Source: Haloglycomyces albus DSM 45210 (lineage in GTDB: Bacteria; Actinomycetota; Actinomycetes; Mycobacteriales; Micromonosporaceae). From it: 64,000 nt of DNA. Below are positions 3,178 to 12,046 of the stretch, in pieces (the stretch's first letter is position 1; every line of letters begins with the position of its first letter). The notes beneath the pieces were generated by a model that saw only the letters and a program-made list of their open reading frames with translations, did no database searches and had not been told where the DNA came from. A program made the position numbers and the translations under genes. Where the stretch lies: NCBI RefSeq assembly GCF_000527155.1, contig NZ_AZUQ01000001.1, positions 986,554 to 1,050,553 on the forward strand, read 5' to 3'.

Positions 3178-4737
<1,560 letters not shown>

Positions 4738-4753
4738 AGCACCACCAAGACGT

Positions 4754-4815
4754 CATGTGAGAGAGCTGTGGTGTCCGACCTCCTTATAGGTCGGACACCA
4801 CAGCTCTCTCACATG
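4754..4815. terminator. Perfect 28-bp inverted repeat downstream of guaB1
   Basis: The arms at 4754-4781 and 4788-4815 are perfectly complementary over 28 bp with a 6-nt CCTTAT loop; the left arm starts CATGTGAGAGAGC. It lies 16 bp after the guaB1 stop. There is no T tract on either side, so it may act as a hairpin-only terminator, an mRNA stabiliser or a protein-binding dyad. The arm is longer than at any other terminator in the window. Confidence 0.75.
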
Positions 4816-5045
4816 TTCGAAAGGCGGCGATACAACGATCCACGATAGACCACGTATCCGTGCAGAGGCGGCGACAAGGGCGGCTGCCCGGCCGCCTTAC
4901 GGAGAAAACAACCGGCGAGCTGCCAGCGAAACACAGAAACGGCAGAACTGCCTGTGCTTTCACAGCAAGACTCGATGTCCCGCAAACCCTTACGTAACTG
5001 GCGAGCCGCTAACAACGCGCGCAGCGCGTGTGCAGCGGCGGTAGA
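4816..5045. repeat. Gene-free stretch with degenerate direct-repeat units
   Basis: I see no supported gene here. Part of it (4911-4956) is a diverged copy of the 41-bp unit found twice near 11.5 kb: both run ggcgagct-ccagcgaa followed by a ggcagaactg/ggtagagctg segment and CTGTG. A second partial unit starts at 4997 (actggcgagc) and ends in gcggtagagctgg at 5050, with a different internal GC-rich hairpin between the conserved ends. The stretch leads directly into the structured element at 5046-5155. Confidence 0.6.
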
Positions 5046-5155
5046 GCTGGGATGGGCTGAGGTGCTGCGAATTCGTGCGAGGAGGATTCGTAACGACCTT
5101 CAGGTCGTGAGAATCCCCCGCAGCGCGAAGGCGTAGTGCCTCAGCCCATCCCAGC
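5046..5155. repeat. Structured intergenic repeat element, copy 1
   Basis: An outer stem pairs 5046-5062 (GCTGGGATGGGCTGAGG) perfectly with 5139-5155. It encloses a 76-nt core with an inner hairpin: GGATTC (5084-5089) and ACGACCT (5093-5099) pair with AGGTCGT (5102-5108) and GAATCC (5111-5116). The core is nearly identical to that of copy 2 at 11588-11697, while the outer stem sequence differs but still pairs. Both copies abut GGTCA and then the 3' end of a minus-strand gene, here the NlpC/P60 gene. I do not recognise the family; it could be a small mobile element, a REP-like unit or a structured RNA or terminator. Confidence 0.75.
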
Positions 5156-5157
5156 GG

Positions 5158-6186
5158 TCACGGACGACCAAAGCCGGCTATGCCCATCATGTCCATATCG
5201 GCCACTCGGACTACGTCACCGGTTTGCGGTGCGTGTACTACTTCGCCGTTTCCAATGTAGAGGGCATTGTGGCTCAGTCCGGAGTAGAAGACGATGTCAC
5301 CGGGCTGCAGTTCACTTCGGGATACTTTGGCAACCTGGTTCCACTGCATGTTGACGTTGTGCGGCAGGCTAACGCCCGCTTGTTTCCAGGACCCGAGGAC
5401 CAATCCCGAGCAGTCCCAACTGTCGGGCCCTGCCGAGCCCCACACGTACGGTTCTCCCTGTTGGTTGAGCGCGAAGTTGACTACCTCGGAGTTGTCTCCG
5501 TTGTAGTTGGGTTGGCGCGCGTCAGGGACCTCCGGGGCCGTCACCTGGTCCAGCAGGTATTCCAGGTCGGCGACGTCGGCTTCGATCTCTTCTTTTTGCT
5601 CTTCCAAGTCGCTGATGATCTCATCGGCGTCTTCCTGCAGGGTTTCGAGCTCCTTTTTCTTCTGCTCGAGTTCCTGCACATTGTCGACGAACTCTTGGAG
5701 GTCGGCCTGTTCGTTGGCCGTCAAGGTCTCGAGGTAGCTCATCCGGTCGGCGATGTTGCCGGAATTTCCACTGAGCACCGCGTTGACGAACGCCGTGTCG
5801 CCGTTGATGTGGGCGTTGGTGACGAGGTCGGCGATTTGATCGCGGGCTTCTTCAACGGCCGCTTCAGACTCGGGCAGGTCTTCGTTGATCTGGTCGATCA
5901 GGTCTTCGGCGTCCTTGAGCTCTTCACGTTTCCCGTTGTATTCTTCGATGACCTCTTCGAGCTCGTCGTTGCGGTCTTCGATTTCCTCGCGTAGCTCTTC
6001 TTCGCTGGGTTCGGCTTGGGCGACGCCTGAACCGAAGAGTACGAGTCCCGCCAACACGCCTGCCGTGCCGACGCTGAGGATACGTTGCCAGGAGGAGCGT
6101 CCTTCAGACTGCGATGATGTCCGGGGCGGGGCAGTCCCTGAAGTGGAGTGGGGGCGCGAATCGGTCATTGGTTCACCGTCAAGCAC
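5158..6186 (-). CDS. Secreted NlpC/P60 peptidoglycan endopeptidase with coiled coil (RipA/RipC-like)
   Basis: The 342-residue protein has a long N-region and a signal peptide or membrane segment at about residues 31-50, ending in an AQAEP-like cleavage region. A highly charged coiled coil follows (about 52-215), and the C-terminal NlpC/P60 domain (about 228-342) has catalytic Cys in DCSGLVLGSW and His in LSHNALYIG. Such enzymes cut peptide stems of peptidoglycan during cell separation, with the coiled coil controlling activity. I kept the GTG start at 6186 because AAGGAG lies 8 bp upstream; the ATG six codons in has no such site. A paralogue lies at the right end of the window. Confidence 0.9.
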   Translation of the reverse strand: MLDGEPMTDSRPHSTSGTAPPRTSSQSEGRSSWQRILSVGTAGVLAGLVLFGSGVAQAEPSEEELREEIEDRNDELEEVIEEYNGKREELKDAEDLIDQINEDLPESEAAVEEARDQIADLVTNAHINGDTAFVNAVLSGNSGNIADRMSYLETLTANEQADLQEFVDNVQELEQKKKELETLQEDADEIISDLEEQKEEIEADVADLEYLLDQVTAPEVPDARQPNYNGDNSEVVNFALNQQGEPYVWGSAGPDSWDCSGLVLGSWKQAGVSLPHNVNMQWNQVAKVSRSELQPGDIVFYSGLSHNALYIGNGEVVHAPQTGDVVRVADMDMMGIAGFGRP

Positions 6187-11410: not shown

Positions 11411-11581
11411 GAAGCTTCCAGCGAAGCCTCGACTACCACACAAGTCCTTTACGTCACTGGCGAGCTTCCAGCGAAGCGCAGAAGCGGTAGAGCTGGCTGT
11501 GTTCCCTACAGAGCTCAACCACCATGAATACCCCGACGAAACTGGCGAGCTTCCAGCGAAGCGCAGAAGCGGTAGAGCTGG
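11411..11581. repeat. Direct repeats of a 41-bp unit next to structured element copy 2
   Basis: Two identical 41-bp units lie at 11456-11496 and 11541-11581, 85 bp apart; each starts ACTGGCGAGCTTCCAGCG and ends GCGGTAGAGCTGG. A partial third (cttccagcgaagc) lies at 11413-11425. Each unit can fold, since CCAGC pairs with GCTGG and GCTTC with GAAGC. Diverged units occur at 4911-5050, in the same order relative to structured element copy 1. Spacers are unrelated to one another and only two full units exist, so this is not a CRISPR array. Confidence 0.8.
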
Positions 11582-11587
11582 AGGGGA

Positions 11588-11697
11588 GCTCAGGTTGTTC
11601 CAGGTGCTGCAGATTTGCGCGAGGAGGATTCGTCGCGACCTTCAGGTCGTGAGAATCCCCCACAGCGTAAATATGGAGTGCCTGGGGCAAGCTGAGC
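11588..11697. repeat. Structured intergenic repeat element, copy 2
   Basis: The outer arms at 11588-11604 (GCTCAGGTTGTTCCAGG) and 11681-11697 pair over 17 positions with two G-U pairs and one mismatch. The 76-nt core matches copy 1 (5063-5138) closely, including the unchanged inner hairpin ACGACCT-TC-AGGTCGT or its CGACCT equivalent flanked by GGATTC/GAATCC. The arm sequence differs from copy 1 yet pairing is kept. It ends 7 bp before the trxA stop. Function is unknown. Confidence 0.75.
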
Positions 11698-11704
11698 GGT
11701 CACC

Positions 11705-12046
11705 TTACTTCAAACCAGCGAACTTTTTGATGACCGGTTTGGAGTTGGCTCCTACCATTTGGTCGGCGGCTTTGCCGTCCTTGAACAGGATCATGGTCGG
11801 AATGCTCATGACGCTGAACTGACGGGCAATGTCCGGGTTGGCGTCTACGTCCAACTTGCGGATGTCGACCTCGTCGGTTTCGTTGGCCAGTTCGTCCAGG
11901 ACCGGCGCGACTTTGCGGCACGGGCCGCACCAGGTCGCCCAGAAGTCGACCAGAACCGGTTTGTCCGACTGCAGCACTTCGGCTTCGAATTCGTCGGTGG
12001 TTACGGGTACGGCCTTACCGGCGGCTCCGGATTTCGTGTCAGCCAT
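11705..12046 (-). CDS. trxA: Thioredoxin
   Basis: The 113-residue protein has a single thioredoxin fold with the redox motif WCGPC (Cys40 and Cys43) and the cis-Pro region MSIPTMILF. It reduces protein disulfides and is recharged by TrxB, encoded 28 bp upstream. The open frame extends 15 codons further, but AAGGAG lies 7 bp before the ATG at 12046, which fixes the start. It is probably transcribed with trxB from the SigR-type promoter upstream of trxB. The expected neighbour cwlM is missing; a structured repeat lies there instead. Confidence 0.95.
   Translation of the reverse strand: MADTKSGAAGKAVPVTTDEFEAEVLQSDKPVLVDFWATWCGPCRKVAPVLDELANETDEVDIRKLDVDANPDIARQFSVMSIPTMILFKDGKAADQMVGANSKPVIKKFAGLK

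What the first reader, a model, noticed from the sequence alone, without database searches (positions are those of the whole stretch)
4911..5160. Two-copy structured intergenic element with covarying outer stem (copy 1)
Together with 11588-11697 this forms an element of constant design: a 17-bp outer stem, a 76-nt core of the same length, and an inner hairpin GGATTC/ACGACCT-TC-AGGTCGT/GAATCC. The stem arms differ in sequence between copies (GCTGGGATGGGCTGAGG against GCTCAGGTTGTTCCAGG), yet both still pair with their own partners. Compensatory change is strong evidence that the structure matters. Both copies have the same orientation and end in GGTCA at the 3' end of a minus-strand gene. I know no family that fits.
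Basis: partly seen in the sequence, partly recalled or inferred. Interest (0 to 1): 0.8.

Follow-up and report, generated by a model that had tools for sequence, protein, structure and literature searches.

The report
Dispersed hairpin-capped repeat family
The two look-alike folded elements belong to a family of about 52 repeats scattered through this one bacterial genome; each is a decaying row of small repeat units ended by a long hairpin that often sits right against the stop codon of the gene facing it.

Summary
In detail: both copies have 17-nt arms around a 76-nt core, the same orientation, and end in GGTCA at a minus-strand stop codon. "Two-copy" is wrong. The genome (3.54 Mb, one contig) holds 52 elements that I compiled: 41 with this core (A/B) and 11 with a different core (C) in the same frame and of almost equal length. 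Each hairpin ("cap") ends a row of 1-5 recognisable units of about 76-112 nt, freshest next to the cap.

Cap pairing is strongly conserved, and the + strand folds better in 48 of 48 caps tested. Some "compensation" may be hairpin self-templating: one cap is a near-perfect palindrome, one has a perfectly palindromic inner core, one a flipped core.

Of 51 caps, 28 end within -4 to +8 nt of an opposing gene's stop (3.2% of intergenic positions in the window would). None of 8 single-unit elements does.

No relative was found in 249 other family genomes, 100 relatives, Rfam, plasmids, phages or viral contigs. Pfam RVT_1 and Y1_Tnp are absent from the genome.

Verdict: a new lineage-restricted family of the REP/BOX kind, probably selfish, its cap often standing in the terminator position. 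It is not a two-copy regulatory RNA. How it moves is unknown.

The parts
4914..4999 (+). copy 1, array unit -2 (degraded): GGCGAGC, hairpin 1, GGCAGAACTGCCTGTG..., spacer
   Evidence: unit profile hit, (W1)
5000..5043 (+). copy 1, array unit -1: GGCGAGC + hairpin 1 + GCGGTA, joined directly to the cap
5044..5162 (+). copy 1, terminal hairpin (cap, type B): arms 5046-5062 / 5139-5155, core 5063-5138, then GGTCAC
5158..6186 (-). NlpC/P60 gene whose TGA stop lies inside the cap's terminal GGTCA (start codon uncertain: 6186 in the ORF listing, 6057 in my caller)
   Evidence: Pfam PF00877
11414..11453 (+). copy 2, fragment of an older unit -3 (weak, 5.5 bits)
11459..11543 (+). copy 2, array unit -2
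11544..11585 (+). copy 2, array unit -1 and linker
11586..11704 (+). copy 2, terminal hairpin (cap, type A): arms 11588-11604 / 11681-11697, core 11605-11680, then GGTCACC
11705..12046 (-). thioredoxin gene; its TAA stop is immediately followed by GGTGACC (reading minus)
   Evidence: Pfam PF00085

Best explanation
It is a lineage-restricted dispersed repeat family (REP/BOX kind): [unit]n - linker - long hairpin cap - GGTCACC - (YACC)n tail. Shown: copy number, modular build, conserved cap pairing, + strand folding preference of the cap, polar decay of the array, fragments of older caps downstream of newer ones, frequent stop-codon adjacency, no match elsewhere in what was searched. Inferred: it spreads as a selfish element, by copying unit+cap from one locus to another. 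One side of each new junction falls in homologous unit sequence (so a fresh unit is added next to the cap); the other side falls at a variable point in or beyond the old cap. Repeated rounds delete flank on that side until the gene boundary is reached, which selection does not allow to be crossed; this ratchet would explain caps abutting stop codons. At those places the cap takes the position where this genome often has a long hairpin terminator, and probably serves as the 3' end of the opposing gene. The folded + strand (RNA or single-stranded DNA) is probably what an unidentified enzyme of the spreading process recognises.
For: 52 elements compiled. Pairing: 99.1% of cells, covariation score 0.270 vs 0.132 shuffled. 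+ strand: G·T 225 vs A·C 77 over 50 opposing columns (A/B, 40 caps; 74 of the 77 A·C come from two near-invariant mismatch columns), 42 vs 3 (C, 8 of 11 caps); mean fold -78.5 vs -61.0 and -81.3 vs -56.1 kcal/mol, + better in 40 of 40 and 8 of 8. Cores A/B and C keep almost equal length (134/135 nt) and a tandem T·G/G·T at the same place. Unit profile score falls 0.455, 0.340, 0.264, 0.208 bits/position from unit -2 to -5. Older cap 3' remnants downstream in 9 of 51; cap types swapped on similar arrays (L002 A-cap / L094 C-cap; L015/L093 junction). Stop adjacency 28 of 51 (-4..+8), 2 more running into the cap; background 369 of 11,688 intergenic nt in the window; 0 of 8 single-unit vs 30 of 43 multi-unit elements, Fisher p 3e-4. 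In L016 and L028 it is the older remnant that lies next to the stop. Seven of 10 opposing proteins scanned have a Pfam domain ending within 25 residues of the C-terminus. Long hairpins: 12 intergenic vs 1 intragenic in the window, 9 of the 12 lying 8-102 nt after a stop; in relative G013 trxA is followed at once by such a hairpin, without this element.
Against: No empty site from the same species exists to show an insertion; the genus holds one genome. No mobilising enzyme was identified. The + strand preference is the wrong strand for a terminator of the opposing gene, and internal units do not show it (+ better in 15 of 60). In the inner stem alone G·T is 33 and A·C 40. 21 of 51 caps were not called stop-adjacent; several precede a same-strand start by about 30-40 nt (L022, L081, L083, L086), others a tRNA (L090) or what I read as an ordinary terminator (L006, L029). 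In L007 and L085 the called gene runs through an old cap remnant, so those two stops are doubtful. The ratchet test is post hoc. Gene calls come from my own codon model. The unit profile was trained on the same arrays, and unit -1, cut by the cap, is not comparable. Relative G011 has no long inverted repeat after trxA. No expression data.
Confidence: 0.6

Rival explanations
1. A functional cis-acting 3'-end module of the host: the cap is kept as a terminator, mRNA stabiliser or translational brake right after the stop codon, like E. coli REPs near stop codons, and copies persist because they are useful.
For: 28 of 51 caps at -4..+8 nt of a stop; caps occupy the place where long hairpins often lie; relative G013 has a long hairpin directly after trxA; REPs within 15 nt of a stop stall ribosomes according to passages of PMC12306157.
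Against: G·U pairs favour the strand opposite to the gene's mRNA; decaying arrays and cap remnants look like turnover, not upkeep; 21 of 51 caps not at a stop; the ten genes scanned are of unrelated function.
Confidence: 0.2
2. A retroposon-like element: a + strand RNA is reverse transcribed from its 3' end, giving a fixed 3' end, a simple-sequence tail (YACC)n(AACC)n and ragged 5' ends.
For: Sharp 3' boundary, variable tetranucleotide tail (a run of nine AACC in the minus element of L089), + strand structure preference.
Against: No RVT_1 domain in the genome at E 0.01 (controls ring in 3 of 14); 5' ends are arrays of older units rather than clean truncations.
Confidence: 0.08
3. DNA-level only: long quasi-palindromes spread and homogenise by ectopic gene conversion and self-templated hairpin correction; no strand is selected.
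For: L091 near-perfect palindrome, L025 palindromic inner core, L088 flipped core; B-type arms pair perfectly though different; L091 has lost the tandem wobble, as self-correction would do; cap swapping on similar arrays.
Against: Self-correction would remove the tandem T·G/G·T, yet both wobbles are kept in 35 of 38 distinct A/B rows and in 6 of the 8 C rows other than L091; G·T exceeds A·C in two cap types.
Confidence: 0.12

Closest known systems
REP / BIME elements with RAYT transposases
   Same: Palindromic, dispersed, extragenic; a share lies just after stop codons (E. coli: passages of PMC12306157)
   Different: REPs are 20-40 bp (abstract start of PMC3733652, listing); here the cap alone is about 119 nt and follows an array of units; no Y1_Tnp match in this genome
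BOX elements of Streptococcus pneumoniae
   Same: Modular (A-Bn-C), structured if transcribed, 125 copies in one genome, largely restricted to pneumococcus and close kin, a middle module in variable number (PMC3049150, abstract and section 5)
   Different: BOX has terminal inverted repeats and target duplications (same source); here no consistent inverted copy of AGCGGTCACC was found upstream; similarity to the BOX sequence was not tested
Integron attC sites (recalled)
   Same: Imperfect palindrome directly after a gene's stop, variable sequence, better fold on the strand opposite to the gene
   Different: Opposing genes scanned include dnaA, a sigma factor and trxA, not cassette genes; no integrase search was made
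CRISPR arrays (recalled)
   Same: Array with one fresh end next to a fixed element and decay towards the other end
   Different: Units fall into a few recurring classes by eye, not unique spacers; no Cas search was made

Membership tests
REP/RAYT system | RAYT (Y1_Tnp) gene in the genome | tested here: not met
   PF01797 in own genome: 0 matches at E 0.01; controls ring in 6 of 14
REP/RAYT system | short palindrome of 20-40 bp | tested here: not met
   cap is about 119 nt with 42 consensus pairs; size taken from the listing of PMC3733652
REP/RAYT system | GTAG or CGTC tag at one end | not tested
   named in the title of PMC3733652; no systematic search made
BOX-like / MITE | terminal inverted repeats | tested here: not met
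   reverse complement of AGCGGTCACC within 400 nt upstream, up to 2 substitutions: 5 of 51 elements had any, at scattered positions; other possible inverted repeats were not tested
BOX-like / MITE | target-site duplication | not testable with these tools
   no empty site in a close strain
BOX-like / MITE | modular, dispersed, lineage-restricted, structured | tested here: met
retroelement | reverse transcriptase in the genome | tested here: not met
   PF00078: 0 matches at E 0.01
Rfam RNA family | match above gathering score | tested here: not met
   0 matches in four element loci; only sub-threshold hits in window 4700-5300
integron attC | integron integrase / cassette array | not tested

The most novel reading that the evidence does not exclude
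A self-copying folded + strand nucleic acid (RNA or single-stranded DNA) that adds a fresh unit next to a fixed hairpin at many loci, CRISPR-like in polarity, through a one-sided homologous and one-sided end-joining reaction carried out by an enzyme of no known mobile-element class, and which ratchets itself against stop codons.
Probability: 0.12. Interest if true: 0.8.

Novelty: new variant of a known kind. Interest (0 to 1): 0.5.

Why it matters
If right, it is a well-preserved record (52 loci, 1-5 recognisable units each) of how a structured bacterial repeat grows and turns over, with exchangeable hairpin caps and a testable explanation of why such repeats end up against stop codons. REP sequences in E. 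coli share that position in part, and the abstract of PMC12306157 (as shown in the listing) says that their biological roles remain unclear. It also warns that covarying arms in long bacterial palindromes can arise by self-templating as well as by selection on RNA.

Tried and rejected
Known RNA family: rejected; the weak Rfam hits were all below gathering, mostly microRNA models. RAYT and own reverse transcriptase: Pfam searches empty. Phage, plasmid or viral origin: no match to the copy 2 stretch or the junction pattern. Relatives: the G080 hit (query 10-43, 86%) lies in a coding stretch that I took by eye for a thiolase; the Neomegalonema and Nocardia junction matches lie inside called genes and lack the 3' motif within 200 nt. 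Lagging-strand single-stranded DNA model: 37 of 52 elements point toward the origin (dnaA at 1.203 Mb; terminus assumed opposite), p 0.003 against 0.5 but p 0.20 against an assumed 62% gene co-orientation, so it adds little. In-situ tandem duplication alone: adjacent units often carry different hairpin-1 forms by eye. RNAalifold on all 60 unit candidates together gave no consensus, so no covariation claim is made for the units; their length range (76-112 nt) reflects a 75-115 nt filter, and some of the 60 are probably not true units. In-57 copy 1 (W1) was anchored 8 nt too far upstream, so its row there (131 nt, unit -1 hit) is off; one search gives 123 nt.

Full report
CHECK. Both copies are as described, with exact arm positions and a 76-nt core, and fold far better than shuffles on either strand. 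The inverted-repeat search lists the copy 1 hairpin as one pair of 54-nt arms (72% complementary); it does not list the less perfect copy 2 cap.

COPY NUMBER. A search of the window's own genome (G000, 3,535,419 bp, one contig) with copy 2 gave 66 matches from 40 scored of 61 candidates, so the list is incomplete. A core pattern gave 39 sites with 0 in the reversed control; the 5' junction pattern gave 50 with 4 in the control. Collecting stretches gave 51 elements plus L092: 41 with A/B cores (one of them, L088, with an inverted core) and 11 with a different core C. A and C share parts of the outer arms (GAGCTCAGG, GCTGAGC) by eye. More degraded copies may have been missed.

ANATOMY. Reading 5' to 3': units of about 76-112 nt (GGCGAGC, hairpin 1 in several interchangeable forms, GCGGTAGAGCTG, a spacer), then a linker, then the cap from GAGCT to AGC, then GGTCACC and, in many copies, a tail of YACC/AACC repeats of variable length. 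A unit profile gives two or more hits in 45 of 52 elements, three or more in 30, four or more in 12, five in 3, before dropping weak distant hits; the score per position falls away from the cap from unit -2 on (the profile was trained on these arrays). Caps from CGGTAG to GGTCAC are 134 nt (A/B) or 135 nt (C); exceptions are 133 in L013 and L025, 135 in L033, 101 in L095 and 123 in copy 1; L092 was not measured.

STRUCTURE. On 40 A/B caps (38 distinct; L088 left out) the consensus of 42 pairs is 99.1% paired and 15 pairs change on both sides; no shuffle of 500 matches it on four of five measures (12 of 500 on the fifth), and sliding the partner destroys it. These controls ignore relatedness, and much of the two-sided change is the A versus B split; changes inside B (six different perfect arms) and inside A (L017, L026, L030) add further cases. 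Over 50 opposing columns A/B holds 225 G·T against 77 A·C (19 against 5 columns); 74 of the 77 A·C sit in two near-invariant mismatch columns. In the inner stem alone the figures are 33 and 40. In 8 of the 11 C caps (L091, L092, L095 not used) they are 42 and 3. So the + strand is the one that folds best. A tandem T·G/G·T sits at the same place in both types, both wobbles being kept in 35 of 38 A/B rows and 6 of those 8 C rows. Against a purely RNA reading: L091 is a near-perfect palindrome and has lost the wobbles, L025 has a perfectly palindromic inner core and L088 a flipped core, as expected of self-templated hairpin repair; and the units show no + strand preference.

POSITION. With gene calls from a codon model trained on the window, 30 of 51 elements face the stop of an opposing gene: 28 within -4 to +8 nt of the cap end, L088 and L011 with the reading frame running 11 and 62 nt into the cap. 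In L007 and L085 the called gene passes through an old cap remnant, so these two are doubtful. In 13 of the 28 the stop is the TGA of the cap end itself (offset -4). Only 369 of 11,688 intergenic nt in the window lie within 9 nt after a stop. Ten opposing proteins were scanned: nine have Pfam domains, in seven ending within 25 residues of the C-terminus (thioredoxin, DnaA_C, sigma r4, TrkA_C, UDPG_MGDP_dh_C, NlpC/P60, Iso_dh); one has none. One element lies between the dnaA stop and a cluster of 15 DnaA-box-like sites before a gene that I take, from position, to be dnaN. Of the other 21, one follows a tRNA-Met, two follow what I read as ordinary terminators (L006, L029), and several precede a same-strand start.

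TURNOVER. Nine of 51 have one or more 3' fragments of older caps downstream of the present cap, including 60 nt matching a B cap below an A cap (L025) and 27 nt matching a C cap (L085). In L016 and L028 the older fragment, not the present cap, lies next to the stop. Arrays that align over about 206 nt carry different cap types (L002 and L094). Single-unit elements were never called stop-adjacent (0 of 8) while multi-unit ones mostly were (30 of 43; p 3e-4, test chosen after seeing the data, L092 not included; the rank test on unit number gives p 0.037). I read this as one-sided replacement that erodes the cap-side flank down to the gene.

DISTRIBUTION. Of 101 genomes searched with copy 2 DNA, only the own genome and one chance hit matched, at most 8 candidates being scored per genome; of 250 family genomes searched with a covariance model of the A/B cap, only the own one, with 14 scored candidates per genome and strict filters. 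C caps were not searched for elsewhere. The genus holds one genome. Pattern searches of named genomes gave 0 and two chance matches; viral contigs 0; plasmids and phages 0; these tools may leave out the own genome. In relatives G011 and G013 the same trxB-trxA / acetyltransferase neighbourhood exists without this element; in G013 a plain long hairpin follows the trxA stop, in G011 none was found.

FUNCTION. Long hairpins after stops look like this genome's ordinary terminators, so caps next to stops probably end the opposing transcript; the strand preference suggests that selection acted on the element's own + strand form. Both statements are inference. Literature: no paper on such a repeat came up in the searches (listings); I saw passages of PMC12306157, PMC8289206 and PMC2267715 and the abstract and section 5 of PMC3049150. 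Most subscription papers are not in that library.

MENDED ON CHECKING.

Noticed in passing
L121 about 1596-1960, DnaA boxes 2270-2570 (genome about 1203.4-1204.4 kb): A copy of the element lies directly after the dnaA stop codon, between dnaA and a cluster of 15 DnaA-box-like sites (up to one mismatch) upstream of the next gene, probably dnaN: a repeat at the edge of oriC.
   Followed up: partly
window 4753-4816: 28-bp hairpin without a T-run, 15 nt after the stop of the IMP-dehydrogenase-like gene (name from memory); one of 12 long intergenic hairpins in the window that look like the ordinary terminators.
   Followed up: partly
L089 (genome about 1488.2-1488.9 kb): Two elements, a B cap and an A cap, back to back in opposite orientation; the A cap is followed by three more tandem GAGCGGTCACC fragments and a run of nine AACC.
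   Followed up: no
L011 around the cap boundary: The arginine-rich C-terminus of the opposing gene, as called, reads through about 62 nt of the cap, so the repeat may supply its last 20 or so residues.
   Followed up: no
L088: A cap whose inner core is inverted relative to the other A caps, consistent with hairpin flipping.
   Followed up: no
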